DNA of 64,000 nucleotides from a virus, in the IMG/VR virus record IMGVR_UViG_3300025110_000002, positions 1-64,000 of that record; one strand, written 5' to 3'. Of this stretch, positions 3,001 through 62,487 are shown piece after piece (within the stretch, counting starts at the first letter, position 1; each line of letters begins with the position of its first letter). The translations under genes were made by a program, and so were the position numbers. The notes beneath the pieces were generated by a model, which had not been told where the DNA came from, made no database searches, and saw only the letters and a list, made by a program, of their open reading frames with translations.

Positions 3001-5078
3001 TTATATCTATTATCAGCTTGTAATACAGCTTCATTTTCTCCATGCTGCTTTTTTAATATCAAATAATGTTCATTTGTGACTTTGTTTCTATCACTTGATG
3101 GGACTGAAATGTATGTAAATCCATTTTCTAAATCTTGATAAAATCTATCAGCAGCAATATTGTAGTATTCCCCAGATGTATCTTTAATATAATACTTAAA
3201 ATATTTTGCCCACGCAGGGGGTTGATTTTTTAATGTTATATTAAATTTACTTTGATTAATTGCATTTTTCTTTTCTATTTTAATACTACTATTTTCTCCT
3301 GTTAATACTGGGGTATGTCTATTATATTCATCTATATAGACAACGCCAATTTGATAATTCCTATCTGATTTAATTGTTCTTTTAAAATCATCTGTTCTTT
3401 CTGCAAGCCCTATTTCAAAATCTGGTTTGCTATACACGTCATAACTTTGGTAATAATTACCATATATTATTCTATTAGCTGTTACTTCTTGTGATTTAGC
3501 TCTTTTAGGGATATTATCCCATGCTCTAAGCAATTGATCATTAGGAATTATAGAGTGTATACGTTCTTTTTCAATAGTAATTTCGTTTGTTAAATCAAAA
3601 TCTATTTTTTTCTTTGTATCATATACATATATATTATTATTTTTTGTTTCCTTAAATAATATATCTATTTCTTCAATATCATCCCCCCCAACATCAAAAG
3701 ATTTAAGTACAATTTGTTGGGTTTTATTTATCATACCATGGTTAAAAGCTTCTTTCCCGTCATATTTAAAGTCTGAAGGAATAAAAACTGGTATTGAAAA
3801 CGGGGATATTGTAGAATACTCCCCATTTTTATATTTCCATCTATAAGCAAATCTTGGAAAATTTAATTCGTATAATGCTTTTTTCTGTGCTAACTCTATA
3901 TCAAAAAGAAAAGAAGCATCTGTAGTGTCTTCTGCAATAGTATCAATCCTTAATTCAATTCTATTGTTAATAGCAGGATCATCACTTATACTTAATACAC
4001 TTGCTTGTATTTGTATTTCTGTGTCTTCGGAAGCTATATCAACTGAGTCGCCTACTTTCCAAACTGGATTTTGAGGTAAACTTTCAATTTTAATTATATC
4101 ACCACTTTTTTTATTAAATAAATTTAAAGACTTTTGTATTAAAATAAGCCCTCCACCTGAAGTAGAATCAAAAATATCAACTGCAGGAGCATTCATTGGA
4201 GCTTTTTTAGCTACAGAAATATCATCCTCATTAAAGTCTCTTGTTTGTATTTGTATAATTCCCGATGCATTTTTTATTTTATATTCTATTTTAGTGTCAG
4301 ACCCAGGGTTGTTTAAAGAATATTTTTTAAATTTTGGTATATAAATACGCCTAGGAGGATTTATATTATCCGTCCAAAACAGCATATCATCTATAATATT
4401 TATACCTGTTATTTTATTTTGTTTTGAAAAGTTTAAAACGCCACCTGACGAGTAAGTAACACTTGGCGAAATATTTCCTAATTTTGGAAAATCATAAATA
4501 ATATTTTTAAATACCATTTCATCATTTTCTTTTCTTAAAACAGTATTTTTAGGAATAGAAATATTAACGTATGGGTCAGAAAGAGTTATATCAACATTAT
4601 TATTAATTAATACCTCCTCATCATTTACAATTGGTAAATTATTAACACCTAAAATTTGTATTAAATTTGCTTCATTATAATTTTTAATCACTAATTCGGA
4701 ATCAACATTACCGCTAAGAACTATTTGATCTAAAGTTGTTATTACACTATTTTTAGCATCATGTATTACAATACTTACAGCTTCTGTTTTTTCATCATAT
4801 TCATAAATACAATCTGCTGTATCAGAAGAAACAAACCAATATATTTTATTTTTTAAAGGATAGGCAATACTACCTATTGTAACAGCATTATCAGTACTAG
4901 AAAATAAAGTAGATAATCTTTCATTACCTAATAAATTTTCAATAGCCCCTACATCAGACGCCTCAGATGATGCTATTTTGATGTTTAAAGCATCAATATA
5001 TTCACCATTTGGTACAAGCCTATCATCGAGGTCTTTATTCATTCTCCCCGATGTAAAAGTACGCTTAAGTTCCGCCAT
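1..5078 (-). CDS. Muzzle / tail-stabilization-type giant protein (3' end cut by window edge)
   Basis: One reading frame stays open from the ATG at 5076-5078 to the window edge, giving at least 1692 residues; the C-terminus is missing. The N-terminus (residues 1-50) carries the pattern GRMNKDLDDRLVPNGEY followed by SDVGAIENLLGN. I recognise this as the conserved start of the phage stabilization/muzzle proteins of crAss-like and related marine podoviruses. The rest is rich in beta-type repeats with many YxxxxxGxI segments, as expected for a propeller-like tail-tip protein. Its ATG overlaps the stop of the preceding ring protein, so it is the next gene in the late connector module. In crAss-like virions this protein caps the short tail. 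The family call is from memory of conserved N-termini, so I am fairly but not fully sure. Confidence 0.75.
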   Translation of the reverse strand, partial: MAELKRTFTSGRMNKDLDDRLVPNGEYIDALNIKIASSEASDVGAIENLLGNERLSTLFSSTDNAVTIGSIAYPLKNKIYWFVSSDTADCIYEYDEKTEAVSIVIHDAKNSVITTLDQIVLSGNVDSELVIKNYNEANLIQILGVNNLPIVNDEEVLINNNVDITLSDPYVNISIPKNTVLRKENDEMVFKNIIYDFPKLGNISPSVTYSSGGVLNFSKQNKITGINIIDDMLFWTDNINPPRRIYIPKFKKYSLNNPGSDTKIEYKIKNASGIIQIQTRDFNEDDISVAKKAPMNAPAVDIFDSTSGGGLILIQKSLNLFNKKSGDIIKIESLPQNPVWKVGDSVDIASEDTEIQIQASVLSISDDPAINNRIELRIDTIAEDTTDASFLFDIELAQKKALYELNFPRFAYRWKYKNGEYSTISPFSIPVFIPSDFKYDGKEAFNHGMINKTQQIVLKSFDVGGDDIEEIDILFKETKNNNIYVYDTKKKIDFDLTNEITIEKERIHSIIPNDQLLRAWDNIPKRAKSQEVTANRIIYGNYYQSYDVYSKPDFEIGLAERTDDFKRTIKSDRNYQIGVVYIDEYNRHTPVLTGENSSIKIEKKNAINQSKFNITLKNQPPAWAKYFKYYIKDTSGEYYNIAADRFYQDLENGFTYISVPSSDRNKVTNEHYLILKKQHGENEAVLQADNRYKIIDIFSEPPGFITNRKKEVYSIGDLVFTDDYSGSGGGNEILAKDQTGARGGAPAVDYNQIQIKGGNGGQGSNIWEGVPLADAKELKPGRFFRFTFGDKESEIYEIKSLQQHPAGSNEIKITVVEPFGEDVEIIWQKASPNNLGTTSGDKANPSGIGLSILEEYTAAGDKEFDGRFFIKLKTNATLTDSIKTQSIGGVSYLAKEAIMLNGIYPREYDRYRNDNNYKNSARYKNKALTNPPNDFVVSDGGSTTNGSAASSGKYTKFAGLEYNITLEQSTHRNDGAFDQITRQIKLGDFVRFKNSDGSDHHETVYEIGAIRFHDKKDQKQGGTRKRTIKCISIRFIDEDGEFLELTKRVCTRDQNTTGAEPLMEILQKLDNEKIIIKEPAIFETEPLESKTDLDIYFETQNAFPIEEHNQLHELEWYNAICFGNGVESNRIRDDFNATFVDIGVRASAPLAQQFKEEHKFNGIIWSGIINSRSGFNQSNQFNAANPITKDLLPSYGSIQKLFARDNDLVIYCEDKIVRALADKDILYNADGSSNLVASNRVIGNIIPFTGEYGISQVPESFAFYGFRAYNADPKRGVILRLSKDGITTISSNNMNAFFDDRLKNNVIKSASYDNEENIYNITFDGLDTVCFNENVNGWVTRKSYIPENALSLNSTYYSYNNGDIWKHGSSNVKRNNFYDTQFSSFVEFTVNDQPSVIKKFKTLGYEGTKNWVAKTIKTDQVSGIETSFIVKENKYFANLTQEAKTSSLLDQKNFSTQGIGKSVAKGASSYVSQLGVVSNTTATFDLNLNPNTLTATTITKTQAPGEKISYIEFKIFAPAGFTINSNDFVGNNFSFVQSKNNEVLAALDLNITQPTTNQSFAYDVIGKITKIPTQVKGAYSIAGDNFDYTGQKSGSYTVSGNLGTEKIINKRTITAAAGYFLEDTSFVITNTSIELELNKISSTIYEIQESVFINNINSVLDYAVNIIPTKIVVLDKLIYSKKIDITALPNTQ

Positions 5079-36728: not shown

Positions 36729-36762
36729 GTACACACTAAATACGAAACTAATCGGATAATAT
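36729..36762 (+). promoter_or_regulatory. Class A element, copy 1
   Basis: Reads GTACACACTAAATACGA, then 8 bases, then GGATAATAT. The first G and the first G of GGATAATA are 25 bases apart, as in all five copies. No gene starts between this copy and copy 2, so they form a tandem pair at the head of the early operon. Promoter-like. Confidence 0.6.
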
Positions 36763-36794
36763 AAATAAAAAACCTCCCGTTCGTTTTAGCTTTT

Positions 36795-36805
36795 GTGTAT
36801 AGCAA
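36795..36805 (-). promoter_or_regulatory. Class B element (GCTATACAC), inverted copy
   Basis: The minus strand reads TTGCTATACAC followed by AAAAGC. It is the only copy in the control region and points toward the late operon. It lies two bases from class A copy 2. Confidence 0.5.
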
Positions 36806-36807
36806 AT

Positions 36808-36841
36808 GTACACACCAAATACGAATCCTTTCGGATAATAA
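36808..36841 (+). promoter_or_regulatory. Class A element, copy 2
   Basis: Reads GTACACACCAAATACGA, 8 bases, GGATAATAA, with the ATG of the first early gene three bases later (36844). If GGATAATA is a -10-like box, the transcript would be almost leaderless. Confidence 0.6.
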
Positions 36842-36843
36842 AT

Positions 36844-37011
36844 ATGAATGATAAAAATATAATTATGTATAATATAAATAAACACACAATAAAAAATATA
36901 ATAAGTCAAGAGTTATTAATGTTACATTCTAAAGATTTTAATTATCACGGTACGAAAACTCAAATAAAAAACATGAAAGATATTTATGAATATATTTTAT
37001 GTACACACTAA
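36844..37011 (+). CDS. First early small protein (unknown)
   Basis: A 55-residue protein, MNDKNIIMYNINKHTIKNII and onward, helical and basic. I start at the ATG just after class A copy 2; a longer TTG frame would run through the repeat itself. Its last codons (Cys-Thr-His-stop) are formed by class A copy 3, so the regulatory element overlaps the gene end. No function recognised. Confidence 0.5.
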   Translation: MNDKNIIMYNINKHTIKNIISQELLMLHSKDFNYHGTKTQIKNMKDIYEYILCTH

Positions 37012-37034
37012 ATACGAGTTGATTTGGATAATAT
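37001..37034 (+). promoter_or_regulatory. Class A element, copy 3
   Basis: Reads GTACACACTAAATACGA, 8 bases, GGATAATAT. It contains the stop codon of the preceding gene (37009-37011) and lies 25 bases before the next plausible ATG (37059). Confidence 0.6.
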
Positions 37035-37058
37035 ATATGAACTTAAAATAATAATACT

Positions 37059-37199
37059 ATGACTATTAAAATTTATGACCAAGACACTAATAATTATATA
37101 GATGAAATATATCTAACTAATATTAATAATAAAAAAGAGATAGAACAAAATATAGAAGAATACTATAATTTAAATAAAATATATTATTCAATAGTTTAA
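37059..37199 (+). CDS. Tiny early protein (unknown)
   Basis: A 46-residue acidic protein, MTIKIYDQDTNNYIDEIYLT then a Glu/Asn-rich helix ending IYYSIV. It follows class A copy 3. The opening strand-turn-strand pattern looks like a folded domain. Function unknown. Confidence 0.5.
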   Translation: MTIKIYDQDTNNYIDEIYLTNINNKKEIEQNIEEYYNLNKIYYSIV

Positions 37200-37255
37200 G
37201 ACCTCGACCAATACCTAACTAATAAAATATAATAATAAACAAAATACATACTTTT

Positions 37256-37432
37256 ATGGATATTAAATTAATAAGAAGAATAGAAAGACAAAATAAAAAC
37301 ACAAATAAGAAAATGACAATGTATAGTCTTGGACAAAAGAGTGTTACACGAATAAGTTTTAGTAAAAATGCCTTATGGAATTATTTAGATTATACTAAAG
37401 AATATTATGCACATACAAGATTACATACCTAA
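37256..37432 (+). CDS. Tiny basic early protein (unknown)
   Basis: A 58-residue protein, MDIKLIRRIERQNKNTNKKM, then ALWNYLDYTKEYYAHTRLHT. The stop lies inside class A copy 4, repeating the arrangement seen at copies 3 and 5. The C-terminal aromatic helix may be a protein contact. Function unknown. Confidence 0.5.
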   Translation: MDIKLIRRIERQNKNTNKKMTMYSLGQKSVTRISFSKNALWNYLDYTKEYYAHTRLHT

Positions 37433-37454
37433 TACGACTAAAATTGGATAATAT
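37421..37454 (+). promoter_or_regulatory. Class A element, copy 4
   Basis: Reads TTACATACCTAATACGA, 8 bases, GGATAATAT. It is the most diverged copy but keeps the 25-base spacing. It contains the stop codon of the preceding gene, and a gene starts 23 bases after it. Confidence 0.55.
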
Positions 37455-37477
37455 AATTGAATATAAATAATAATAAA

Positions 37478-37609
37478 ATGACAAAACTACATAAAATAAT
37501 AAACAGTTACAAAAATAATAATATGAACAAAATTAGATTAAGTTATAATTTAAAGAACTATTATAATTTAACTGAAGAAGAAAGACTAACTATAGTAAAA
37601 AATATTTAA
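37478..37609 (+). CDS. Tiny early protein (unknown)
   Basis: A 43-residue Asn/Lys-rich protein, MTKLHKIINSYKNNNMNKIR, ending LTEEERLTIVKNI. It is placed between class A copy 4 and the next gene, whose ATG starts one base after its stop. Function unknown. Confidence 0.45.
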   Translation: MTKLHKIINSYKNNNMNKIRLSYNLKNYYNLTEEERLTIVKNI

Positions 37610-37610
37610 A

Positions 37611-37820
37611 ATGACCAATAGAGAAATAATTAGAAAAAATTTAATGTTAACAAACAATATTATGGGCAAAAGATTTAGAATAGAATTAGGAATATTTCTA
37701 CACGAATATTCAAAGAATTTATGGGACTGTGATGGTTTTGATTTATTACCTGAACAGAATAAAGAATGGATACGAAATAGTGTCTTAAACGAAATGGATA
37801 AACAATTAAGATTAAAATAA
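37611..37820 (+). CDS. Small early protein (unknown)
   Basis: A 69-residue helical protein, with MGKRFRIELGIFLHEYSKNL (about 18-37) and WDCDGFDLLPEQNKEWIRN. The two-helix plan with a conserved-looking WxCDGFDLLPxxNKEWI suggests a real folded protein. It is flanked by short spacers in a run of small genes. Function unknown. Confidence 0.55.
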   Translation: MTNREIIRKNLMLTNNIMGKRFRIELGIFLHEYSKNLWDCDGFDLLPEQNKEWIRNSVLNEMDKQLRLK

Positions 37821-37826
37821 TATAAA

Positions 37827-38024
37827 ATGAGCAACGCATATAATATAGGCAGAATTTTAGGACTAGTAAGAACTTTAGAAACAGACTTACATTTAATAGA
37901 AAACCTTTGTATAAATGAAGAATCTATGGAATATAGAGAAAAGACTGGAAAAAGATTAGTTAAAGAAGCTAATGAAAGACTAAGTGAAATATATAAAATC
38001 GCGGACGAATTAGAATTAATTTAA
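37827..38024 (+). CDS. Small helical early protein (unknown)
   Basis: A 65-residue protein of two or three amphipathic helices (YNIGRILGLVRTLETDLHLI, then REKTGKRLVKEANERLSEIY). It ends immediately before a class B element. Function unknown; protein-protein contacts, as in anti-host factors, are possible. Confidence 0.55.
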   Translation: MSNAYNIGRILGLVRTLETDLHLIENLCINEESMEYREKTGKRLVKEANERLSEIYKIADELELI

Positions 38025-38035
38025 ATGCTATACAC
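38025..38035 (+). promoter_or_regulatory. Class B element (GCTATACAC)
   Basis: Reads ATGCTATACACA followed by ATGG and then AAAAT. It lies between a stop codon and the likely start at 38037, and could also be read as four extra N-terminal codons (Met-Leu-Tyr-Thr). Confidence 0.45.
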
Positions 38036-38036
38036 A

Positions 38037-38342
38037 ATGGAAAATAATAATAAATATGAGGGGTGGACAAATTATGCCACATGGAGAATAAACCTAGAAT
38101 TATTAGGAGATTATGATTGGGCTAATGAAGTTTTAGAAAGTGATAATGAAAGCTGGAGACCAGATGTTGACTATTTAAAAGATTTAGTTGAAAACTGGGT
38201 TTTTGAGAATCATACAGGAAGTTTAGGCTTGGTTGAAGATTATGCGAGAGCTTTTGTTGATCAAGTAAATTACTATGAAATATTAGAACATATTTTAGAA
38301 GATATAGACAATGAATTAAAAGCAAGAGGAGATGAAAGTTGA
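38037..38342 (+). CDS. Conserved small phage protein (WTNYATWR family)
   Basis: The product (101 residues from ATG 38037; 105 if the class B element is read as coding from 38025) has the signature YEGWTNYATWRINLELLGD near its start. I recognise this as a widespread small phage-protein family of unknown function. It continues with WVFENHTGSLGLVEDYARAF and an acidic helical end. It is strongly acidic, unlike its basic neighbours. The stop overlaps the next gene. Function is not known; acidic DNA-mimic roles are conceivable but unsupported. Confidence 0.7.
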   Translation: MENNNKYEGWTNYATWRINLELLGDYDWANEVLESDNESWRPDVDYLKDLVENWVFENHTGSLGLVEDYARAFVDQVNYYEILEHILEDIDNELKARGDES

Positions 38343-38571
38343 TAATAATAATTATGCAGGTGGAAAAACTGTAAAAGAAATGGAAGAACAACTAAAAAGA
38401 TGTTTGGACTTTGAAGAAAAATATGGAAAATCTATAAGAACCACTTCTTGGATCAAATGGTGCACGAGTGAAAAATATAGAAAAAGATCTCAGGATTTTA
38501 ATCAATCAATTGCCAGAACAATGAGGAGTATGAATCCTGTTAAACTATATAATATAATAAATAACAAATAA
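38332..38571 (+). CDS. Small basic early protein (unknown)
   Basis: A 79-residue protein with a helix TVKEMEEQLKRCLDFEEKYG (about 13-32), then SIRTTSWIKWCTSEKYRKRS and a basic end. It overlaps the acidic gene upstream by 11 bases. Function unknown. Confidence 0.5.
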   Translation: MKVDNNNYAGGKTVKEMEEQLKRCLDFEEKYGKSIRTTSWIKWCTSEKYRKRSQDFNQSIARTMRSMNPVKLYNIINNK

Positions 38572-38582
38572 AATTAAATAAA

Positions 38583-38939
38583 ATGGAAAAAACTAAACAA
38601 AGATTAAGAGACACTTATCCTCAAGTAGAAAAATTAGAGGATTATTTAAATATAGAAATTACCGACAATGACTGGACAAATAAAGACTTAGAAATCACTG
38701 AATGGAATACAGCTGATGGATATGAAATATATGTAATGAGTGAAGACTCTTCACAATTAAATTGGGAAAATGATGTTTATTATTATAAACCTGACACGGA
38801 AACAGTACTGGAACGTATTGAACAAGCAAGTTTAGATTTTGGTGAAGGTGCTAGAATTTTAATATATGATATTGAAGAGCATTTACCTGAAGACGAAGTT
38901 GAAGATTGGATAAATAGTAAAACAGAAGAAGATGAGTAA
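38583..38939 (+). CDS. Acidic early protein (unknown)
   Basis: A 118-residue very acidic protein (many Asp/Glu, ending SKTEEDE) with a beta pattern in the middle (DGYEIYVMSEDSSQLNWEND, then VYYYKPDTETVLERI). The fold could be alpha/beta. Eight bases of overlap join it to the next gene. DNA mimicry is an unproven option, given the charge. Confidence 0.55.
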   Translation: MEKTKQRLRDTYPQVEKLEDYLNIEITDNDWTNKDLEITEWNTADGYEIYVMSEDSSQLNWENDVYYYKPDTETVLERIEQASLDFGEGARILIYDIEEHLPEDEVEDWINSKTEEDE

Positions 38940-39108
38940 AACAAAAGAACTTAGAGTTTTAATTGATAAAATTAAACTACAAACTAAAACAGAATTAGAT
39001 AGAATTGTTCACTGGGAAGTTACAGACTGGTCAGAAGATAAAGAAAGTTATATAAAAAAAATTATCTCTGAAGAATTATTCCATGAATATAATAAAGAAA
39101 ATAAATAA
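38932..39108 (+). CDS. Tiny helical protein (unknown)
   Basis: A 58-residue protein, MSKTKELRVLIDKIKLQTKT, then WEVTDWSEDKESYIKKIIS. The ATG overlaps the stop of the acidic gene (ATGAGTAA), typical of coupled translation. Function unknown. Confidence 0.5.
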   Translation: MSKTKELRVLIDKIKLQTKTELDRIVHWEVTDWSEDKESYIKKIISEELFHEYNKENK

Positions 39109-39109
39109 T

Positions 39110-39253
39110 ATGAAAATGCTATACACACACAGAAAATATTCAAATTGCTGTGACGCTTGGCCTTTAAGTGAGGTTGACGAATACAACACGGGGAGATGTT
39201 CTGCGTGTTTAGAAGGAGCAGTGTTTATTGATGAACACATCAAATACGAATAA
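39110..39253 (+). CDS. Tiny zinc-ribbon-like protein
   Basis: The 47-residue product has four Cys in SNCCDAWPLSEVDEYNTGRC and CSAC, the layout of a small zinc knuckle. The CCDA...GxCSxC pattern recurs in short proteins of many tailed phages. A class B element lies in its first codons, and its stop codon lies inside class A copy 5. Likely a nucleic-acid or protein-binding accessory factor. Confidence 0.6.
   Translation: MKMLYTHRKYSNCCDAWPLSEVDEYNTGRCSACLEGAVFIDEHIKYE
39116..39126 (+). promoter_or_regulatory. Class B element (GCTATACAC), inside a gene start
   Basis: Reads ATGCTATACACA and falls on codons 3-6 of the zinc-ribbon-like gene. The overlap with coding sequence leaves open whether it acts as a site here. 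Confidence 0.4.
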
Positions 39254-39266
39254 AACTGGATAATAT
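39233..39266 (+). promoter_or_regulatory. Class A element, copy 5
   Basis: Reads GAACACATCAAATACGA, 8 bases, GGATAATAT, and ends seven bases before the ATG of the next gene (39274). The stop of the zinc-ribbon gene is inside it. The 25-base spacing is kept. Confidence 0.6.
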
Positions 39267-40635: not shown

Positions 40636-40707
<72 letters not shown>

Positions 40708-40722
40708 CTAAATATATAAATT

Positions 40723-40992
40723 ATGAAAAATAAATATGATATGAAATATATTGATGAAAGAATAGAAGGAATGATTATTGCTAAACTTTCTTATTATAGA
40801 TTAAGAGTTAGAGATTTAGTAAATAAACGTCATGCTGCTAATTATCCTGATTTACATTATATTTCTGTTACAGGAGCAATAAGAGACCTTAGGGTGTGGA
40901 TGCAAATGGCTAAATTAATTGAAAAAGCTTATGATGGATTTGTTCCATCAGAACCTTACGCGATTTATATGGCCAAAAAGCTTACAAATTAA
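40723..40992 (+). CDS. Small basic early protein (unknown)
   Basis: An 89-residue helical protein, GMIIAKLSYYRLRVRDLVNK then HYISVTGAIRDLRVWMQMAK and an aromatic end. It starts 15 bases after the tRNA. The Arg-rich second helix could bind nucleic acid. Function unknown. Confidence 0.55.
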   Translation: MKNKYDMKYIDERIEGMIIAKLSYYRLRVRDLVNKRHAANYPDLHYISVTGAIRDLRVWMQMAKLIEKAYDGFVPSEPYAIYMAKKLTN

Positions 40993-41019
40993 ATACAAAC
41001 AATTAAAGATAATATCAAC

Positions 41020-41220
41020 ATGAGCATAAAAGATTTAAAAGAATACGTAATAAATAAACGCAAGGCCCAACAAAAAAAATGGGAAGAAGACGTCAAAACG
41101 TATGGCGCATGCCAGCCTCTAACACTAAAAGAGTATCTTAAATATAAAGACATTATAATAGCTGGTAAAAAAAATCATAAAATAAAATTCGTGCATAACA
41201 GATTATGGAAAAGAAAATAA
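41020..41220 (+). CDS. Small basic protein (unknown)
   Basis: A 66-residue protein, IKDLKEYVINKRKAQQKKWE then TYGACQPLTLKEYLKYKDII and a Lys/Arg-rich end. It overlaps the next gene by 16 bases. Function unknown. Confidence 0.5.
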   Translation: MSIKDLKEYVINKRKAQQKKWEEDVKTYGACQPLTLKEYLKYKDIIIAGKKNHKIKFVHNRLWKRK

Positions 41221-42595: not shown

Positions 42596-43213
42596 ATGTC
42601 ATATAGAAATTTAGCATATTTAAACAGCCGTCGACTAATTTATAGACGAGGACCCTTAACTGACACCCCATCTGAAAAATTTATTTGGGGTGACTTTTAT
42701 AAGGATGGAACTTATCAATGTTATGAGTTGTTTAAAAGTAAAGCCAAAATAACATCGTATAAATCATTTAAATGGCATATCTTAGTGCTGTGGTATTTAA
42801 ATGCTAATATGAATTTGAAAGAAATTACTGAATTAGCTATGTTTCTTGCAAATAAAGAAAATGGGTTTGTAAGCATAACTTTATCTCCCACAACAATACA
42901 ATACATTGTAAATGAGGTTGATAAAATAGATCTTGAAAGGCCACCTAAAAATAAATTAAGAAAAATAATTTTTAAAGATCGATCAGGATTAGATAAATTA
43001 GAAAAATTAAGAATTGTAGGAAAATTAATTGGTAAAAAGAAGAAAGCAGAGCCCAATGATATATATGAAGCTATGATGTATATTAACCATGCTGAACAAA
43101 AAATTACTATCAATTCAATAGCTAAAGTATTAAGTGTATCAACTAGAACAATATATAGGAATATAACTAAGGAAATTAGAGAAGAAAAAATATTGTTAAA
43201 TGAAGAAATATAA
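42596..43213 (+). CDS. Helix-turn-helix protein next to the sigma factor
   Basis: The 205-residue protein ends in a helix-turn-helix, TINSIAKVLSVSTRTIYRNI (about 176-195), of the type used to bind DNA or pair with sigma factors. The N-terminal region has KAKITSYKSFKWHILVLWYL and NMNLKEITELAMFLANKENG, possibly a second helix-turn-helix with GFVSITLSPTTIQYIVNEVD. It overlaps the sigma-factor gene by 14 bases, so the two are co-translated. A transcriptional activator, repressor or anti-sigma partner is the best guess. Confidence 0.6.
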   Translation: MSYRNLAYLNSRRLIYRRGPLTDTPSEKFIWGDFYKDGTYQCYELFKSKAKITSYKSFKWHILVLWYLNANMNLKEITELAMFLANKENGFVSITLSPTTIQYIVNEVDKIDLERPPKNKLRKIIFKDRSGLDKLEKLRIVGKLIGKKKKAEPNDIYEAMMYINHAEQKITINSIAKVLSVSTRTIYRNITKEIREEKILLNEEI

Positions 43214-43943
43214 TATACAAAACTATATAAGACTAAAAAACGAATTATATGTTTATGAAAATTCCTCTAAAAAACAAAATGAAAGAGAGATACTAATTAT
43301 ATCAAATATAAAAATGGTAGAAAATATAGCAAGAAAATTTTCAACATCACAGCAAGCTTCCGGCGTTTTAGATATTACAGATCTAATACAAGAGGGAAGT
43401 ATAGGATTAATACAAGCTGTTGATAAAATTGATTGGGAAAGAATAGACACATCTGATGACCCAAAAAGATCACTTAATAGTTTTTTAAGTAAAAGAATTA
43501 AAGGGGCTATACGGCGCGCTATAGATATAAATAGAGGTAATATACGTATACCTGAACATAAATTAAATGATATAAGAAAAAATTCAGCTAAAGAACAAGC
43601 AATGGTGCAAGCATTTTTTAATAGTATTTTTTTAAGTATTGATAATCCTTCACCAGATACTAGTATGGTATATGAAATACCAGATAAAGCAAAAGAGTAT
43701 AATTTAGATATTTTAAATAAATATTTATTATCTATAATGGAAACACATCTAAATATAAAAGAATATGATGTGTTAAGAATGAGCTATGGTTTAGACTGTG
43801 ATAAAATGACCGCTAAAGAAATAGCCGCTAAATTAAATGTAAAAGGGATAGCCTCTTATGTAAGAATATCCCAAATAAAAAGAGAGGCAATAAATAAATT
43901 AATAGAAACCGTAGATCCAGCGCAAGTAGCTGATTTACTTTAA
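43200..43943 (+). CDS. RNA polymerase sigma-70 family factor
   Basis: The 247-residue protein has the core-binding and -10-recognition region 2 (about 30-110), with VENIARKF, DITDLIQEGSIGLIQAVDKI (about 58-77) and FLSKRIKGAIRRAID. A region-3 hallmark follows (RIPEH, about 116-120), then a region-4 helix-turn-helix (about 185-240, with KMTAKEIAAKLNVKGIASYV). A complete group-like sigma in a phage implies that the host RNA polymerase is redirected, since no phage RNA polymerase is visible here. It likely turns on a later class of phage promoters. Confidence 0.88.
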   Translation: MKKYNIQNYIRLKNELYVYENSSKKQNEREILIISNIKMVENIARKFSTSQQASGVLDITDLIQEGSIGLIQAVDKIDWERIDTSDDPKRSLNSFLSKRIKGAIRRAIDINRGNIRIPEHKLNDIRKNSAKEQAMVQAFFNSIFLSIDNPSPDTSMVYEIPDKAKEYNLDILNKYLLSIMETHLNIKEYDVLRMSYGLDCDKMTAKEIAAKLNVKGIASYVRISQIKREAINKLIETVDPAQVADLL

Positions 43944-47802: not shown

Positions 47803-48598
47803 ATACTTGCAATTAATGGCAGGGGTTCTTTATGGGGGTAAAGAAAAAGAAGACAGAACAGGAACCGGCACAAGATCAGTGTTTGGCAGAATGATAAGAC
47901 ACGATATGAAATGTGGGTTTCCAATATTAACAACAAAAAAAATATATTTTGAAAAAGCACTTGCAGAAATTTTATGGATTATTAACGGAAGAACCGATCT
48001 TAAGTATCTCCATGACAACAATATTAAGTATTGGGATTATGATTATAAAAGATCTAAACGCACAGATGGAACTCTGGGTAAAATATACGGCCATCAGTGG
48101 CGTAATTTTAATTCTGTTGATCAGTTTAAGGAGGTCATTAATGAAATTAAAAATAATCCAAATTCGCGGAGACTTATGGTTTCGGCTTGGAATCCTTTTG
48201 ACATGGGTGATATGGTTTTGCCTCCCTGTCATTATGGCTTTCAAATTTATATAAACAAAGGTAAGATGAGTTTAATGTGGCAACAAAGATCTGCTGATAT
48301 ATTCTTAGGATTACCTTACGATATAACCATGTACGGCTTACTACTAGAAATGTTGTGTGCTGGACTTGGTTACGTTCCGGACCAATTGATAGGCAGTTTG
48401 GGCGATTGTCATTTATATAACAATCATTTAGATCAAGCTAAACTTCAATTAGGAAGAACACCCTATATCCTACCTAAAATAAAAATAAAAAAGGGTATTG
48501 ATATAAAAAATGGTGCATTATTTGTACCAACTAAAACTATGATTAATTTAATTAAATACAAACACTATGAAACAATTAAAGCTAACCTTTCTTATTAG
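47783..48598 (+). CDS. thyA: Thymidylate synthase (ThyA type)
   Basis: The 271-residue enzyme converts dUMP to dTMP with methylene-tetrahydrofolate. Key features are DRTGTGTRSVFG (about 24-35) for the phosphate loop, WIINGRTDLKYL, RRLMVSAWNPFD (about 129-140), and the catalytic Cys149 in LPPCHYGFQ. LPYDITMYG and DCHLYNNHLDQ also match. Length matches the family. It overlaps the next (secreted) gene by 32 bases. Parts of the gene (for example 48181-48240 with 27 G+C of 60) are richer in G+C than its flanks. Confidence 0.95.
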   Translation: MINIENEYLQLMAGVLYGGKEKEDRTGTGTRSVFGRMIRHDMKCGFPILTTKKIYFEKALAEILWIINGRTDLKYLHDNNIKYWDYDYKRSKRTDGTLGKIYGHQWRNFNSVDQFKEVINEIKNNPNSRRLMVSAWNPFDMGDMVLPPCHYGFQIYINKGKMSLMWQQRSADIFLGLPYDITMYGLLLEMLCAGLGYVPDQLIGSLGDCHLYNNHLDQAKLQLGRTPYILPKIKIKKGIDIKNGALFVPTKTMINLIKYKHYETIKANLSY

Positions 48599-49001
48599 TG
48601 TATTTGCTATTTTTATGGCCAATGCTCAATGGCTTTCGTTTTCAAAAAACAAAGCTGTAAAATATCAAAACGCTGTAAGAAGTTATTATGAATTAAATCT
48701 ACTATCTTTGGATAGAGAATTAAGCAGATCTGCTCAATTATGGGCAGAAGAAATGGCGGAAACAGATGATTTTTTATTTTCACCCTATGAATTTGGTGAA
48801 ACTATATATAGATTAAATAAAAAAGAATTTTTTGAGCCAAAAAACAGTTATTTAGATGCTGCTGTAGCATGGATTCAGGCTTACGAAGAACCTGAATATT
48901 ATCAAACTTTATGTGTAGATTGTGCTTTTGTAGGATACGGAAAAGCAGAAAACGAATCCTATATTTATATAGTAGCAAAATACGATAAATTATATAAATA
49001 A
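48567..49001 (+). CDS. Secreted CAP-domain (SCP/PR-1-like) protein
   Basis: The 144-residue product begins with a signal peptide (MKQLKLTFLISVFAIFMANA, cut before Gln-Trp). The mature part resembles a CAP domain: YELNLLSLDRELSRSAQLWA (about 42-61), EEMAETDDFL, GETIYRL, AAVAWIQAYEEPEYYQ and FVGYGKAENESYIYIVAKYD. One Cys pair (LCVDCAF) is kept. It would act in the periplasm or at the cell surface. Such a protein is surprising among nucleotide-synthesis genes; superinfection exclusion or envelope remodelling are possible. Confidence 0.7.
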   Translation: MKQLKLTFLISVFAIFMANAQWLSFSKNKAVKYQNAVRSYYELNLLSLDRELSRSAQLWAEEMAETDDFLFSPYEFGETIYRLNKKEFFEPKNSYLDAAVAWIQAYEEPEYYQTLCVDCAFVGYGKAENESYIYIVAKYDKLYK

Positions 49002-55683: not shown

Positions 55684-58600
55684 TTAATATTTTTTAATTA
55701 TTCGATCTACTTTTCTTAAAAGTTTATCTATATCGGGAGCCGCTTTTGGCTCTTTTATATTTAAGTCCCATTCGCTATATCCTAAAGCTAGAAAAATTGA
55801 TTGCCATAGTTCTGTTTCGGGTTTCATAGCAGTATTTAAATGATCCATTTTTAATATTACTCTATCAAGAGGTAAATTGGTGCCAGCAGATACAATTTGT
55901 CCAAAAGCTAAAAATCCTGGATTTTCTAAACTAAATCCTTCTGTATATACTTTTTCTTTGCTTTGTTTATAAGTAAAAGTTCTACTAGCAGCTAATAATT
56001 TTCTTAATTTTGAATCTATAGGAGGAGAAAGTGAAACAGACTTTAACGCAACTCTAGTATAGTCTGATCTTTTTGCTTTAGACTGTCTAATTCCTTCTAA
56101 TACCATATTTTTTATAACTGTTGCAACAGCCCCATATACCCCTGTACCCCTAACAAAACTATCAATACTACCGTTAAGTAATTTAGAATACCTTCTTTTT
56201 TCATCATCTTCTGTTGTATCATCAAACATCAATGCAAATAATGCAGATTGTAACGAGTTAAATATAATATTCTGTATTACGCTATAATATACAATTTTAC
56301 TAATATTTGCCTTCCAATCTCCGCGTTTATTAATTAAATCTAAAAATGCTTTTTTAGTTAATCTAGTATACTGCATAGGGGTGTTAGCGAAGGCTAATAT
56401 AAGGCGCCCTAAACTACCAGCTTGTTGCATTGAAATACGGTCTGGACGTGCAGACTGTTGTGTCTCTTCAGCAATTTCCATAAAGTCTGTAAAAGCTTTT
56501 TCTTGTGCTTCTTTTTGAGACATACCTTGTTTTACATAAGTATCTATCCTATTTCTATAAAATGATGCACCACCAGAAGCAATTGCAAATGAATCCGCAA
56601 TTTGTGTAGGTGTAAAACCAAATTGAAGTATTGCACTCAACATTGCTCTTACTTTATTTTTTGATGTTTTAGCCGAGTTAGCAATTTCATCTGCATTGAC
56701 ATCTATTTGTAATCCAGAACGTCTTTGTTTTAAAAAGTCTGAATTAAATAAAAATGTAAAGTCTTTTACAAATTGTGGGAAATTAGCTAATGCCATTCCA
56801 GCTTTTAATGGATTATTATCACTCCAATTTATAAAGTTCACAGCTGATATAGTCTGTAATAAAGCTGATCTAGTATTAAAGAACATAATTGTTCCTACAG
56901 AATCATTAGTCCAATCTAAAAATATTTTTTCATTTTGACTAGCACTTGATCTTCTATTCCTACCAGTTTTCATCCTAGTAATAATATCTTCTAACGCTAC
57001 AACATATCCATTACCATATAAAGCTCTTAATTTATCTTTATTTTGATCACTAAATACTGTGTCTATATTTTCTTTCCATTCTTCTAAAAATTCTGCTCTT
57101 CTTACATCATTTACATAACCAACAAGATCTGTTGTTATATCTCCACTATTCCAATTTTCAGTAGGTGATGGATAACCTTCAGGATTTAAAACCATTAATC
57201 TTTCTGCAAAAGCTTTTAATAAAGGATCATTTCTAACAATTTTTAAATTTTCATTTATTTCTTTTTTAAGGATACCTTCTATTTCCATGCCTTGTTTAGT
57301 CCACATGTATATTCTTATAGAGTCTTGGTTTGTAAACCCAGATTCATTTACTTTGGTTAATCCTATAGGAACATCTTTTGATGCCTCTTTTTTAAGAAGC
57401 GACCACTCCCTAAGCGAATTTTCTTTTTCTCTTTGCCAAGCTTGTATACCTTTAGAGAAAGGTCTTATTAAGTTATCTTCGTACCACTGTCTTTGTTGGT
57501 CCCCTACTTTTCCTTTCCCAAGTGTTACATATAATAATCCTAAAAAGTCTTCTGCAGAATATGGAACAAAAAATTTGTTTCTTCCTTTAGATTGGCCTAC
57601 AAGTTTAGCTTTAACAGGAGAAAACTTTTGATACCAAGGTGTACCAGTAGTACCTTGTATTAATTCGTTAAATTGTCTACTTAATCCTTTTGACGCTTTA
57701 GAAGTAAGTTTTTCTTTTAATATTTCTGCATCAATTTTATTTTCTATATTAAATCTAGAAGGCTTTACTTTTTTTGGGTCAAAAACAGACATTTCATTTC
57801 TAAGAGCAGTATATATTAAATTGTTTTCTCTATTCTTACTAGTCCCACTCCCACTCGATTTTAAATAAAAATCCATTTTCAATTCAATATCAAATCTATC
57901 AGCCTTTTCAATATTTAAAATATTTCGACCTATAAAATAAGTTCCATAGCCATCTCCGATATGTATATAAAAATTATCTTTATTATTATAATGATTTTCA
58001 AGGCTTATAACAGTAATTTTTATACCTTTCCCAAACGCTTTTTTATAAAATTCTTGTTTTTCTAACTCTTCTAAAGTTTCTCTTTTTATAGTTCCTTTTA
58101 ATGGAAATTGAGTTTGTGGCCCTTTAAAATCTGGATTAATTTTTTCTTCCATTTCATTAATAAAATTCAATGCTTCACGAACAGCTGGCATGTTCCTTTC
58201 AAAAAAAGCTTCAAATAATCCAACATTTGGCAAATCTTTTCTATCAACTATTTTTTTGTTACGTATAAAGTCTATTCTAGGGTCTTTAAGATCTGTGCCA
58301 GAAAAATAAACCCGAGAACTACCACCCCCCATTCTAGCTGTTATACTTTTTTTAGCTTCTAAATAAAGAGGTTTTTCTTTCCCTTCTTGTTTAAATTGTA
58401 AATCTGGACTGTTATTATCATATCCAGCACCTCCGCCTAATACAGGTAACCCGTATTCTCGCATTTGTTTCCCGAGCACTTCTTCAAAAATTAATCCACC
58501 AAAAGTTTCTCCTTTAATAATACCATCTTCCCATAATTTAATAGTAAAATCTTTTACAAAATCAAGCTGATCTTCAGCGAATCCTTTAGGTTTATAGTTA

Positions 58601-61600
58601 TTAAAACGATCAGAAATTATTTCGTCTTCTTTTAATATTTTTGCAAATTCAAAAGCGATATTTGAAAATTCTGATGAGGTTAATCCTTTCGATGCTTTAG
58701 ATCTATATCCTCTGTCTATTTTTCTTGCAATTTCCTGTATATAAGATTCTGCAACGCCGATACCCGATAATTCTTGAATTTCTCTAAATCTATTCATGAT
58801 AGATTCATTTTTCAAAATTTCATTGGTAGCATCAAACGCAAGTTCAACTCCTATCTCTTCTGTAAGTGCTATTTTACGGTTTCCTAATGCAGATTTTTTA
58901 TATGCAGTTTTATCTGTAAAATATTCAACCCATTCTTTTTCACTAATTTTTCTTTTCTTAAATAAAGGTTTACCTTGCCCTAAAGTTTTTACATCTCTTC
59001 CTTTTTCAACGGGCAATTTTTCTCTCATTTGAACACCATCTTTATCAAGTAAAGGTTCTTTAAAAGCTTGAAATCTTTTATTAATAGTAGACAATGGTAA
59101 ATTGTCATATATAGCTTCAAAATTTTCAGTTAAAAAATTTTCATAGCCACCAGTATCATTAATAAACTTTACTATTTCGGGTTTTAACTTTGTTCTAAAA
59201 GTTTTAGTTAAAGCCGCATTGAAAGCTTTAACACTTATATTAGGTAATTTTGTACCAAAAGCCAATTCTACAGCCTCCAAAACTTTATCTGATAACTCAG
59301 GATCAACACCTAATTTACTAGCTAAATCATCTTTTTTAATTTCTACTGTTTTTTCTTCTAATTCAAATGCACTTTCTGTAGCTGTGTCTGGTGTTCCTTT
59401 AAGAGTATCAACATCTAACATAAACTCTTTACCTAATAATTTTTGAGCTTGTTCAATAGCTCTTCTTCCTAAATATTTATTTATATAACCAGCCAGCGGA
59501 GCTCCTTGTGCTTTTGCTTTAGTATAATCCATTATTAATCCTAACAAACCTCTTTCGTCAAAAGTAATTGCATCTTTTAATTCATTAAAATCAAAATTTG
59601 GTGTGTTTTTATAATTATTTGTAATCTTATTTAAAATTGGATCAAATAATTCTATAATTTCCATTGCCCCTTCAGCTCCTTTTTCATTATATATATCTGT
59701 AACCTTTTGGGAATCTACTTCTCTTTTACTTGCTTTGGATATTATCCCATCTATTGCCTGAGATTCATTTAAAATTTCATCACTAATTTCAATACCTTCT
59801 TGCATTGCTTTTATAACAGCTCCACTTGTTTTCCCCTTTCTTACAGCATGACTATAATCTTTTATAAAATTAAAAACATCAGCTCCGTCTTCAAATCTAA
59901 TTTTTTTCCACCCTATATCTTGTAAAATTCTTCTTAAAATATCACCTAGTTTAGCTAAAAACCCTTCATTAGGTTTTTTTATAAGAGGATTATTATATAT
60001 ATCTGAAATAGCATTAAATAATTCTTCTGCTCTTGCTTGTTCAGTATAATTAGGGTCATTTTGATATTGTGTAAGAATTTGATTTAAAATAGACCCTTCT
60101 TTAAATAAATCTGGATCTATTTTCATTAAATGATCTTTTAACAAAGTAGATAATTCAACAACCGCTGTAGTTTTTCCGTTGTATAATGTTTTATATAAAC
60201 CATTATGCAATATTTCATGGCCCGCTACAGTAACATTCCCTGTTTGTCCAGCTACTTCCATATTCATTACCATAACCGCACTGCCATCTGCTTTAGGATC
60301 AGATACCCTACCTGAATCGGTTTCTTGAGCATCTTTAATTCCAAATTTTTTGGCTGTTTCAACAAAATCTTTACTATTCTTTACTTCTATAATTTTTAAT
60401 TTTTGATTTAAAGCACCTGCAAATCTTCTGCCTTTAAGAACTTGATCTGTAAGTTCAGCTGTAACATAAATTTTTAATTTTTCTTGTCTAATTTCTTCTA
60501 ATCTAGCTTCATTTCTTTTAGCAAAGGTTTTATCAACATTTTTATTTTCATTAATTATTTTAGATTCTTCTATTAATAAATTAATTAATTTTTGTTTAGC
60601 TCCACCAACAACCGAAGGAGGGACTTTCATATTAGCATTATCAACATCACTTATAGTGGACAGTTGTTTTTCACCTTGTTCTTTGGTAATTTCACCTTTA
60701 ATTACTGAAGCTTTTATATTTTTCTTTAAGTCTTTTAATATATATGATTGAGAATTAACATCGCCAAAAGATGCAACTCTATTAGCTAAAGCTGTTGTTT
60801 CTTTTATAGTATAAGAAGCAGCCTTAACACTAAAAGGTAAAAATCCACCAACTATACCTCCCTGTGCTCCAGCTTGTTTTATTTCATCTAAATCAATATA
60901 TTTTCCTGAATCTCCAATAGAAAATCCTTTAGATATTTGAGAAGTTAAAGTTTGAAAACTTTCTGTTAAATATTCAACCATATAACCCCTAGCCACAGCT
61001 TTACTAGACCCTTTTAATCCTCCTTGTTTTACAAATCTTCTAATACCATCTTTTACAATAGATCTAATAAGTGCTTTACCGGGTTTTGTTATCATTGTTC
61101 CTACAATTGTAGTCGCCCCTGTAAATTCTAAAGCAGATTGTATTGTGGCAGACGCCGCAGCAATTCCGCCATCTCCTTCCCCAGCTTCTAAATAATTTAA
61201 AAACCCTTCTTCTGAAAACTCTTCTCCGTTAGCTTCCATTTTTGCGATAATGGTATCAAAATATGCATTACCGTATTCTTGCGCAAAAATACCAGTACCG
61301 AAAGTAAGTACAGCTATAGGAAGCTGGATTGCTTGTTCTCCAACTAATAAAGCTAAATCTCCCCAACTCTCCGGCATTAATCCATCTAGTTTTGCTTTTT
61401 GAAAAGCTTTTAAATCTTGTTCTATTTCTTTTAAATTAAGATATTTATTTAAAATTTTTTCTTTTTGTTTTATTATTTGAATTTTTGCTTGTTTTACAGT
61501 AACTGGCCTAGGTGGTCTTGTATCATAAGTTTGAGTACCAGGTGTGCTAGACAATGTATACGCTACTTCGGCATCATCTTTATCTTTAATTGAATCATTT

Positions 61601-62487
61601 AGTCTTTTAAGTTCGCTTGCATCAAATGAAATGTCAGTTCTTCTTAAAGAGGCATTTACTTGTTTAAATCCTTTTTGCATGGCTTCCCATAGTTTGGAAT
61701 CATCAGTTAAACCAAGTTCAGATCTTTTTGCATCAACCCATTGTTGTCGTTGTATTTCTGATAATCTGTTAAATTTATTATCATAAGATTTAATTATAGC
61801 ATCTTTAAAAGCGTCTATTCTTTTATTATATGTTCTATTGTTAGAAACAGTATCTAAATACAATTTTGTTGCGTAATTATTTAATTTAATATTAGCAGCA
61901 TTTATTTGATCAATATCAGTTAAATCTGTATTTTCTTTAAGTTTATTTTTAAAATTTTCAATTTTAGGCTCCAAAACCTTTTGAACATCTTTTAATAAAT
62001 GATTTTGAAGATAACGATCCCCTTTAATCATAGATAGTAAAGAACTATTTAAAGATTCACTTATATCTTGTGTTTCTTTAAACACAGAAAAATCTAAAGT
62101 ATTTACGAGTTTATCAGCGTAGTTAAGAGCACTTTCTTCGTCCATCTGAGGGGCATAAGGGTCTATACCCGCATCAGTTAACATTTTTAAGCGTAGCTCG
62201 CTGTTTTTATCTTTTGTAGACAGATAAGTTTGGAATTGTTCTTCATATTTTGGAGGAGTGAATACCAAGGTGCCATTTCCCGAATTGGAAGCCATATCGG
62301 GCGCTTGTTTCCCTCCCGCAGCCGCACCCTGAGCATTGGGGTTTATCTTTACTGGTCCTTCATACAATACAGCATCTGGATGATCTAAAAGAAATTGAGA
62401 TTTGCTTTTAGGTCCAACATTATATTTTTTACCATCAGGATCAATATAAATTTCATTTTTTACTTTTTGGTCCAATGTTGCTTCCAT
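55684..62487 (-). CDS. Giant virion-internal polyvalent protein with protease-like and nuclease-like motifs
   Basis: A 2267-residue protein. Visible parts in order: N-terminal helical region; a Gly-rich hydrophobic stretch (about 385-560); a zincin motif His757-Glu758-Ile-Leu-His761 in VAGHEILHNGLY with an acidic helix ARAEELFNAISDIYNN about 65 residues later; and a PD-(D/E)XK-like nuclease core, Asp1362 in NSPDLQF, then Glu1377-Ala-Lys1379 in YLEAKKS, with FEEVLGKQMREYG before it. A C-terminal alpha-rich domain (about 1900-2160) has QQSARPDRISMQQAG and a hydrophobic tail. This multi-enzyme layout fits 'polyvalent' proteins injected with the DNA. The equivalent position in crAss-like phages holds cargo proteins; no RNA-polymerase DFDGD-type motif is visible. 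Confidence 0.75.
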   Translation of the reverse strand: MEATLDQKVKNEIYIDPDGKKYNVGPKSKSQFLLDHPDAVLYEGPVKINPNAQGAAAGGKQAPDMASNSGNGTLVFTPPKYEEQFQTYLSTKDKNSELRLKMLTDAGIDPYAPQMDEESALNYADKLVNTLDFSVFKETQDISESLNSSLLSMIKGDRYLQNHLLKDVQKVLEPKIENFKNKLKENTDLTDIDQINAANIKLNNYATKLYLDTVSNNRTYNKRIDAFKDAIIKSYDNKFNRLSEIQRQQWVDAKRSELGLTDDSKLWEAMQKGFKQVNASLRRTDISFDASELKRLNDSIKDKDDAEVAYTLSSTPGTQTYDTRPPRPVTVKQAKIQIIKQKEKILNKYLNLKEIEQDLKAFQKAKLDGLMPESWGDLALLVGEQAIQLPIAVLTFGTGIFAQEYGNAYFDTIIAKMEANGEEFSEEGFLNYLEAGEGDGGIAAASATIQSALEFTGATTIVGTMITKPGKALIRSIVKDGIRRFVKQGGLKGSSKAVARGYMVEYLTESFQTLTSQISKGFSIGDSGKYIDLDEIKQAGAQGGIVGGFLPFSVKAASYTIKETTALANRVASFGDVNSQSYILKDLKKNIKASVIKGEITKEQGEKQLSTISDVDNANMKVPPSVVGGAKQKLINLLIEESKIINENKNVDKTFAKRNEARLEEIRQEKLKIYVTAELTDQVLKGRRFAGALNQKLKIIEVKNSKDFVETAKKFGIKDAQETDSGRVSDPKADGSAVMVMNMEVAGQTGNVTVAGHEILHNGLYKTLYNGKTTAVVELSTLLKDHLMKIDPDLFKEGSILNQILTQYQNDPNYTEQARAEELFNAISDIYNNPLIKKPNEGFLAKLGDILRRILQDIGWKKIRFEDGADVFNFIKDYSHAVRKGKTSGAVIKAMQEGIEISDEILNESQAIDGIISKASKREVDSQKVTDIYNEKGAEGAMEIIELFDPILNKITNNYKNTPNFDFNELKDAITFDERGLLGLIMDYTKAKAQGAPLAGYINKYLGRRAIEQAQKLLGKEFMLDVDTLKGTPDTATESAFELEEKTVEIKKDDLASKLGVDPELSDKVLEAVELAFGTKLPNISVKAFNAALTKTFRTKLKPEIVKFINDTGGYENFLTENFEAIYDNLPLSTINKRFQAFKEPLLDKDGVQMREKLPVEKGRDVKTLGQGKPLFKKRKISEKEWVEYFTDKTAYKKSALGNRKIALTEEIGVELAFDATNEILKNESIMNRFREIQELSGIGVAESYIQEIARKIDRGYRSKASKGLTSSEFSNIAFEFAKILKEDEIISDRFNNYKPKGFAEDQLDFVKDFTIKLWEDGIIKGETFGGLIFEEVLGKQMREYGLPVLGGGAGYDNNSPDLQFKQEGKEKPLYLEAKKSITARMGGGSSRVYFSGTDLKDPRIDFIRNKKIVDRKDLPNVGLFEAFFERNMPAVREALNFINEMEEKINPDFKGPQTQFPLKGTIKRETLEELEKQEFYKKAFGKGIKITVISLENHYNNKDNFYIHIGDGYGTYFIGRNILNIEKADRFDIELKMDFYLKSSGSGTSKNRENNLIYTALRNEMSVFDPKKVKPSRFNIENKIDAEILKEKLTSKASKGLSRQFNELIQGTTGTPWYQKFSPVKAKLVGQSKGRNKFFVPYSAEDFLGLLYVTLGKGKVGDQQRQWYEDNLIRPFSKGIQAWQREKENSLREWSLLKKEASKDVPIGLTKVNESGFTNQDSIRIYMWTKQGMEIEGILKKEINENLKIVRNDPLLKAFAERLMVLNPEGYPSPTENWNSGDITTDLVGYVNDVRRAEFLEEWKENIDTVFSDQNKDKLRALYGNGYVVALEDIITRMKTGRNRRSSASQNEKIFLDWTNDSVGTIMFFNTRSALLQTISAVNFINWSDNNPLKAGMALANFPQFVKDFTFLFNSDFLKQRRSGLQIDVNADEIANSAKTSKNKVRAMLSAILQFGFTPTQIADSFAIASGGASFYRNRIDTYVKQGMSQKEAQEKAFTDFMEIAEETQQSARPDRISMQQAGSLGRLILAFANTPMQYTRLTKKAFLDLINKRGDWKANISKIVYYSVIQNIIFNSLQSALFALMFDDTTEDDEKRRYSKLLNGSIDSFVRGTGVYGAVATVIKNMVLEGIRQSKAKRSDYTRVALKSVSLSPPIDSKLRKLLAASRTFTYKQSKEKVYTEGFSLENPGFLAFGQIVSAGTNLPLDRVILKMDHLNTAMKPETELWQSIFLALGYSEWDLNIKEPKAAPDIDKLLRKVDRIIKKY

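What the first reader, a model, noticed from the sequence alone, without database searches (positions are those of the whole stretch)
36729..39266. Five-copy promoter-like element with invariant 25-base spacing
The element (G)(T/A)ACA(C/T)A(C/T)(C/T)(A/T)AATACGA-n8-GGATAATA occurs at 36729, 36808, 37001, 37421 and 39233. In every copy the first base and the first G of GGATAATA are 25 bases apart and the n8 spacer is variable in sequence but fixed in length. All copies face the early genes, and copies 3-5 contain the stop codon of the upstream gene. This is seen directly. It does not match the usual Bacteroidota promoter (TTTG at -33, TAnnTTTG at -7). I infer a dedicated phage early promoter, or a site for a phage factor.
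Basis: partly seen in the sequence, partly recalled or inferred. Interest (0 to 1): 0.75.

Follow-up and report, generated by a model that had tools for sequence, protein, structure and literature searches.

The report
Phage promoter read by phage sigma
A fixed-length 33-base DNA element, repeated in front of small genes in a large group of marine viruses that probably infect Flavobacteria-like bacteria, is a promoter whose start point can be placed to the base from sequence comparison alone, and it is most likely switched on by a sigma factor that the viruses carry themselves.

Summary
In detail: five exact copies lie at the stated coordinates with fixed spacing. A sixth, diverged copy is at 40982-41014. 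The element recurs, nearly always on one strand, in more than 100 IMG/VR stretches, mostly from phages of about 65 kb. The refined consensus is tTACAAAcTAAATACGA-n8-NGATAATA, with the spacer fixed in 235 of 238 cases.

The sixth base after GATAATA is 99% purine. An ATG there is followed by an open frame in 36 of 37 cases; an ATG two bases earlier in 13 of 110, which is background. This places the transcription start at that base, GATAAT at -12..-7, and the upstream block at -38..-22.

Phages with the element carry a phage sigma factor (window 43200-43943) and an overlapping helix-turn-helix gene wherever enough sequence is present, with one exception (G015). Eighteen relatives without these genes lack the element. 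No phage RNA polymerase was found.

Best explanation: a promoter for host RNA polymerase carrying the phage sigma, perhaps with the HTH protein on the upstream block. The promoter is well supported; its reader is inferred. New variant of a known kind.

The parts
36729..36761 (+). Copy 1 of the promoter; predicted start of transcription 36767 (A); runs into copy 2
   Evidence: exact core match; start register from 336 relatives' sites
36808..36840 (+). Copy 2; predicted start 36846 (G); leader 19 bases to ATG 36865 of a 48-aa frame
37001..37033 (+). Copy 3; predicted start 37039 (G); leader 20 bases to ATG 37059 (46 aa); holds the upstream stop TAA 37009-37011
37421..37453 (+). Copy 4; predicted start 37459 (G); leader 19 bases to ATG 37478 (43 aa); holds the upstream stop TAA 37430-37432
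39233..39265 (+). Copy 5; predicted start 39271 (G); leader 3 bases to ATG 39274 (89 aa); holds the upstream stop TAA 39251-39253
40982..41014 (+). Copy 6, diverged (TTACAAATTAAATACAA-n8-AGATAATA); predicted start 41020 is the A of the ATG of ORF 41020-41220 (leaderless); holds the upstream stop TAA 40990-40992
   Evidence: profile score 25.2 against at most 16.4 in random sequence
42596..43213 (+). Helix-turn-helix protein, 205 aa, overlapping the start of the sigma gene; candidate reader of the upstream block
   Evidence: HTH_11 in 24 of 35 homologues; found in all 9 further element-bearing genomes compared, not in MW202828; confident model without a significant known fold
43200..43943 (+). 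Phage sigma factor of the sigma-70 family, 247 aa, regions 2 and 4; proposed reader of GATAAT
   Evidence: Sigma70_r2 and r4 in Pfam; profile match to SigA/RpoD of solved structures

Best explanation
The element is a promoter. GATAAT sits at -12..-7, the conserved block TTACAAAcTAAATACGA at -38..-22, and transcription starts at a purine six bases after GATAATA, giving leaderless messages or A-rich leaders of about 20 bases. It is most likely used by the host's core RNA polymerase carrying the phage-encoded sigma factor (43200-43943). Sigma region 2 would read GATAAT; the upstream block would be read by sigma region 4 or, perhaps more likely, by the HTH protein encoded just before sigma. Shown from sequence: orientation, spacing, start register, and linkage to the sigma/HTH genes.
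For: 212 distinct sites give one consensus. 42 contigs: nearly all copies on one strand, reversed control almost nil. Base +1 is purine in 99% of 336 sites; ATG at +1 open in 36/37, ATG at -2 open in 13/110 = background. Spacer invariant in 235/238. Of 80 loci found by the sigma protein alone, 72 hold the element (388 sites on sigma's strand, 1 on the other); the 8 others lack upstream sequence or score just under threshold. 18 TerL relatives of the MW202828 type have neither gene nor element. Sigma aligns with SigA/RpoD; its residues at the -12-reading positions are changed (sigma-70 Q437, T440 to G, R), which fits G at -12. In three phages the element lies directly before sigma itself, start within two bases of its ATG. 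Relatives without sigma are enriched for host-type promoter boxes (70 against 38 +/- 5), sigma phages are not (73 against 82 +/- 8).
Against: No expression or binding data. Co-occurrence is confounded by descent: the same genomes share other genes absent from MW202828 (ERF, primase, a 2267-aa virion-like protein). No host-type first promoter that would make the first sigma was detected upstream of copy 1. The most invariant block (-28..-22) is not where sigma region 4 usually binds, so sigma alone may not explain it. G015 has one copy and no sigma.
Confidence: 0.72

Rival explanations
1. A promoter read by host RNA polymerase with a host sigma, helped by a phage activator (such as the HTH protein) on the upstream block, as T4 MotA does. 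The phage sigma would then serve other, late genes.
For: The upstream block is centred at -30, like the MotA box (PMC2988021). A weak, different box (GTGTAAYWAT) recurs before some late-arm genes and could be sigma's target. It would explain expression before sigma is made.
Against: The host sigmaA box of Flavobacteria is TAnnTTTG (PMC9723704), unlike GATAAT. Seven genomes carrying single sites showed no set of further sites that would suggest a host regulon.
Confidence: 0.13
2. A promoter of a phage-encoded RNA polymerase, T7-like, N4-like or crAss-like, injected with or made from the phage genome.
For: Copy 4 (TAATACGACTAAAATTGG) resembles the T7 promoter TAATACGACTCACTATAGGG (T7 sequence from memory). 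The virion has a crAss muzzle domain, and crAss-like phages carry a virion polymerase.
Against: No T7-like polymerase in 21 genomes while T7 itself rings at 1e-109. No DFDxD site in a plausible protein. The large 2267-aa family matches no polymerase. The start lies after GATAATA, not at GG.
Confidence: 0.07
3. Not a promoter: an operator, replication site or RNA-level element.
For: Multi-copy, short, clustered near the divergent start of the two gene arms.
Against: No RNA structure above shuffled controls; no Rfam match except a tRNA. Strict orientation, a purine at one base and true start codons beginning exactly there fit a transcription start best.
Confidence: 0.04

Closest known systems
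Promoters of phiEco32 and phage 7-11 read by phage sigma factors (phi32_gp36, SaPh711_gp47; PMC8948821)
   Same: Phage-encoded sigma redirects the host polymerase to a short phage-specific consensus; start 6-9 bases from it; phiEco32 also has an accessory protein (gp79)
   Different: Consensus unrelated (tAATGTAtA; GTAAtg-16-aCTA); those promoters drive middle or late genes; no long block at -38..-22; host E. coli/Salmonella
T4 middle promoters (MotA box plus sigma-70 -10 element; PMC2988021)
   Same: A -10 box at -12..-7 plus a phage-factor block centred at -30 that takes the place of a -35 box
   Different: Block sequence and length differ (17 bases against about 10); -10 box here does not suit the host sigmaA; phage brings its own sigma; spacing here is rigid, 12 +/- 1 in T4
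Flavobacterial sigmaA promoters (TAnnTTTG; PMC9723704)
   Same: A-rich leaders of about 20-24 bases and some leaderless messages
   Different: Different -10 region and no TTTG-type upstream box
T7 class promoters (own knowledge)
   Same: Shared letters AATACGA in the recognition part
   Different: No T7-like polymerase gene; start site elsewhere; 8 variable bases; GATAATA box

Membership tests
Promoter of a phage-sigma holoenzyme (phiEco32/7-11 kind) | Phage genome encodes a sigma-70 family factor | tested here: met
Promoter of a phage-sigma holoenzyme (phiEco32/7-11 kind) | Start of transcription 6-9 bases from the conserved box | tested here: met
   By comparative inference only: 99% purine and start-codon boundary six bases after GATAATA; not measured
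Promoter of a phage-sigma holoenzyme (phiEco32/7-11 kind) | Holoenzyme with the phage sigma initiates at the element | not testable with these tools
   Needs in vitro transcription
Promoter of a phage-sigma holoenzyme (phiEco32/7-11 kind) | Element and sigma occur together | tested here: met
   one exception G015 (single copy); confounded by descent
T4-type middle promoter | MotA box sequence TGCTT at -30 | tested here: not met
   Block is TTACAAAcTAAATACGA
T4-type middle promoter | MotA homologue | tested here: not met
   Nearest candidate matches only HTH families in Pfam; no significant fold match
Flavobacterial sigmaA promoter | TAnnTTTG at -12..-5 | tested here: not met
   Consensus GATAATA-taaaTR at these positions (consensus from PMC9723704)
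T7-like polymerase promoter | Phage-encoded single-subunit RNA polymerase | tested here: not met
   PF00940 absent in 21 records; T7 control positive
Crassvirales virion-polymerase promoter | Virion RNA polymerase with DFDxD motif | tested here: inconclusive
   Motif scan only, no profile of the enzyme was run; the few DxDxD hits lie in tail-like or other proteins

The most novel reading that the evidence does not exclude
A two-protein promoter code private to this marine phage group: the phage sigma reads GATAAT while its co-encoded HTH partner reads a rigidly spaced block at -38..-22. It would replace host-type promoters in the small-gene arm and be partly self-amplifying, because some sigma genes carry the promoter themselves.
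Probability: 0.4. Interest if true: 0.75.

Novelty: new variant of a known kind. Interest (0 to 1): 0.62.

Why it matters
To my knowledge few promoters of Bacteroidota phages have been mapped. Here a promoter class with predicted start bases is defined for a large uncultivated marine group and can be tested in one RNA experiment. It ties the class to a sigma/HTH gene pair, gives start codons for many tiny unknown genes, and could supply an orthogonal promoter-sigma pair for Flavobacteria.

Tried and rejected
Virion or T7-like polymerase. RNA structure or known RNA family. Covariation of element positions with sigma or HTH residues gave only clade-level signals; sigma region 4 recognition residues vary in L297, L304, L308, L320 and L321 while the upstream block stays, which weakly favours the HTH protein as its reader. 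A host-type first promoter upstream of copy 1 is not enriched. A late-arm motif search gave only a weak GTGTAAYWAT. Fold search with the HTH model gave no significant match. No paper found in the held library describes the element.

Full report
Observation. The five copies are real, exact and evenly built. The first-order Markov expectation for the 15-base core is about 8e-5 per strand in 64 kb. A sixth copy at 40982-41014 differs at two core bases; its predicted start base is the A of the ATG of ORF 41020-41220.

Where it comes from. The window is most of a 68,123-base virus record. TerL resembles those of Flavobacterium and Cellulophaga phages (about 46% for the best of them) and MW202828 (62%). 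One structural protein carries a crAss muzzle domain. The host is inferred, not known, to be a marine member of the Flavobacteriaceae: from these relatives, from A-rich leaders without Shine-Dalgarno sequences, and from a phage-like contig with four copies in a Flavobacteriaceae assembly (L412).

Spread. In 42 contigs re-scanned with one mismatch there are 1-21 copies per contig, nearly all on one strand; the reversed control pattern gives almost none. 212 distinct sites give tTACAAAcTAAATACGA-n8-GGATAATA, followed by an A-rich stretch of about 30 bases. The core letters were fixed by the search pattern; the flanking letters were not.

Start base. In 336 sites found through the sigma gene, the sixth base after GATAATA is A or G in 99%. 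ATG at that base: 37 cases, 36 with an open frame of at least 40 codons. ATG two bases earlier: 110 cases, 13 open, equal to background. The commonest other start codons lie at +19 to +25. Messages therefore most likely start exactly there, and roughly a tenth would be leaderless. F. psychrophilum has a median leader of 24 bp and 5.5% leaderless messages (PMC9723704). In this register GATAAT is -12..-7 and the upstream block -38..-22. TACGA to GATAATA is 9 bases in 235 of 238.

Reader. The ten full element-bearing contigs compared share a sigma-70 family gene and an overlapping HTH gene. Selecting contigs by sigma finds the element in 72 of 80, 388 sites against 1 on the other strand; of the other eight, six hold little sequence upstream of sigma and two score 19, just under the threshold of 20. 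Selecting by the element finds sigma in 34 of 42; seven of the other eight carry the element near the contig end where sigma would lie, and G015, with a single copy, is the exception. Among 39 records chosen by TerL, 18 of the MW202828 type have neither gene nor element, several of them 54-65 kb long; G064, G065 and G068 have all three; G077, G062, G078 and G079 are cut near the relevant end. The sigma aligns with SigA/RpoD. In region 2.4 the residues aligned with sigma-70 W433, W434, Q437 and T440 are K, R, G and R (numbering from own knowledge), which fits a -10 box with G at -12. In L297, L308 and L321 the element lies directly before sigma, with the start within two bases of its ATG, suggesting feedback in those phages.

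Upstream block. It is most invariant at -28..-22, downstream of the usual sigma -35 contact, rigidly spaced, and centred at -30 like the T4 MotA box (PMC2988021). The HTH protein is the natural candidate: 24 of 35 homologues match HTH_11, its recognition helix is nearly invariant, and sigma region 4 varies in some phages while the block does not. This is inference.

Alternatives. No T7-like polymerase (T7 control positive), no DFDxD motif in a plausible protein, no polymerase similarity in the 2267-aa family. No RNA structure. The host sigmaA box differs. Sigma-less relatives are enriched about 1.8-fold for host-type boxes while sigma phages are not, as expected if the sigma clade left host promoters behind; this contrast rests on six against ten genomes.

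Open points. How sigma is first made: no enriched host-type promoter was found upstream of the first copy. Descent confounds co-occurrence. 'Early' is positional only. The target of any late promoter is unresolved.

Verdict. Promoter: about 0.93. Read by the phage sigma: about 0.75. HTH protein on the upstream block: about 0.45.

Noticed in passing
L410/L440-L441 (G085 C2:160149 and 141676), L411, L407, L406, L409: Single full matches of the element in Flavobacteriaceae or Flavobacteriales assemblies, some on chromosome-size contigs. In G085 two copies, 18.5 kb apart, head a duplicated gene for a small secreted-like protein in a region with integrase and excisionase genes; the one in L406 follows a tRNA-Asp gene. 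Could be chance in 257 Gb, or host or mobile genes tapping the phage promoter.
   Followed up: partly
L408 (Prochlorococcus single-cell assembly, 64-kb contig): A phage-like contig with one copy of the element before a gene related to window ORF 38583-38939 (37% over 60 aa); no sigma found in that assembly.
   Followed up: partly
minus arm of the relatives, e.g. upstream of orthologues of 64062-64757: A weak recurring box GTGTAAYWAT (extended -10 like) before some late-arm genes, possibly a late promoter; not enriched overall.
   Followed up: partly
sigma-less relatives MW202828, G045, G048, G049, G054, G059: About 1.8-fold enrichment of TTG-n17-20-TAnnTTTG host-type boxes, not seen in the sigma phages.
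   Followed up: partly
55684-62487: 2267-aa protein with HEILH and PD...EAK-like motifs, conserved C-terminal part in relatives, no known family: a possible injected polyvalent protein.
   Followed up: partly
1-5078: Protein with a crAss muzzle C-terminal domain in a phage where no crAss-type virion polymerase was found.
   Followed up: partly
G018, 55767-56520: Sigma gene appears broken by frame changes or stops in a contig with 11 element copies; decay or assembly error.
   Followed up: no
upstream of the first copy in G003, L285, L289, L290, L300, L319: Repeats of the type TATGACAT-n-TGACATA before the first promoter, possibly an origin or operator.
   Followed up: no
40636-40707: tRNA gene between the small genes.
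   Followed up: no
48567-49001: CAP-domain (secreted cysteine-rich family) protein in the phage plus arm.
   Followed up: no
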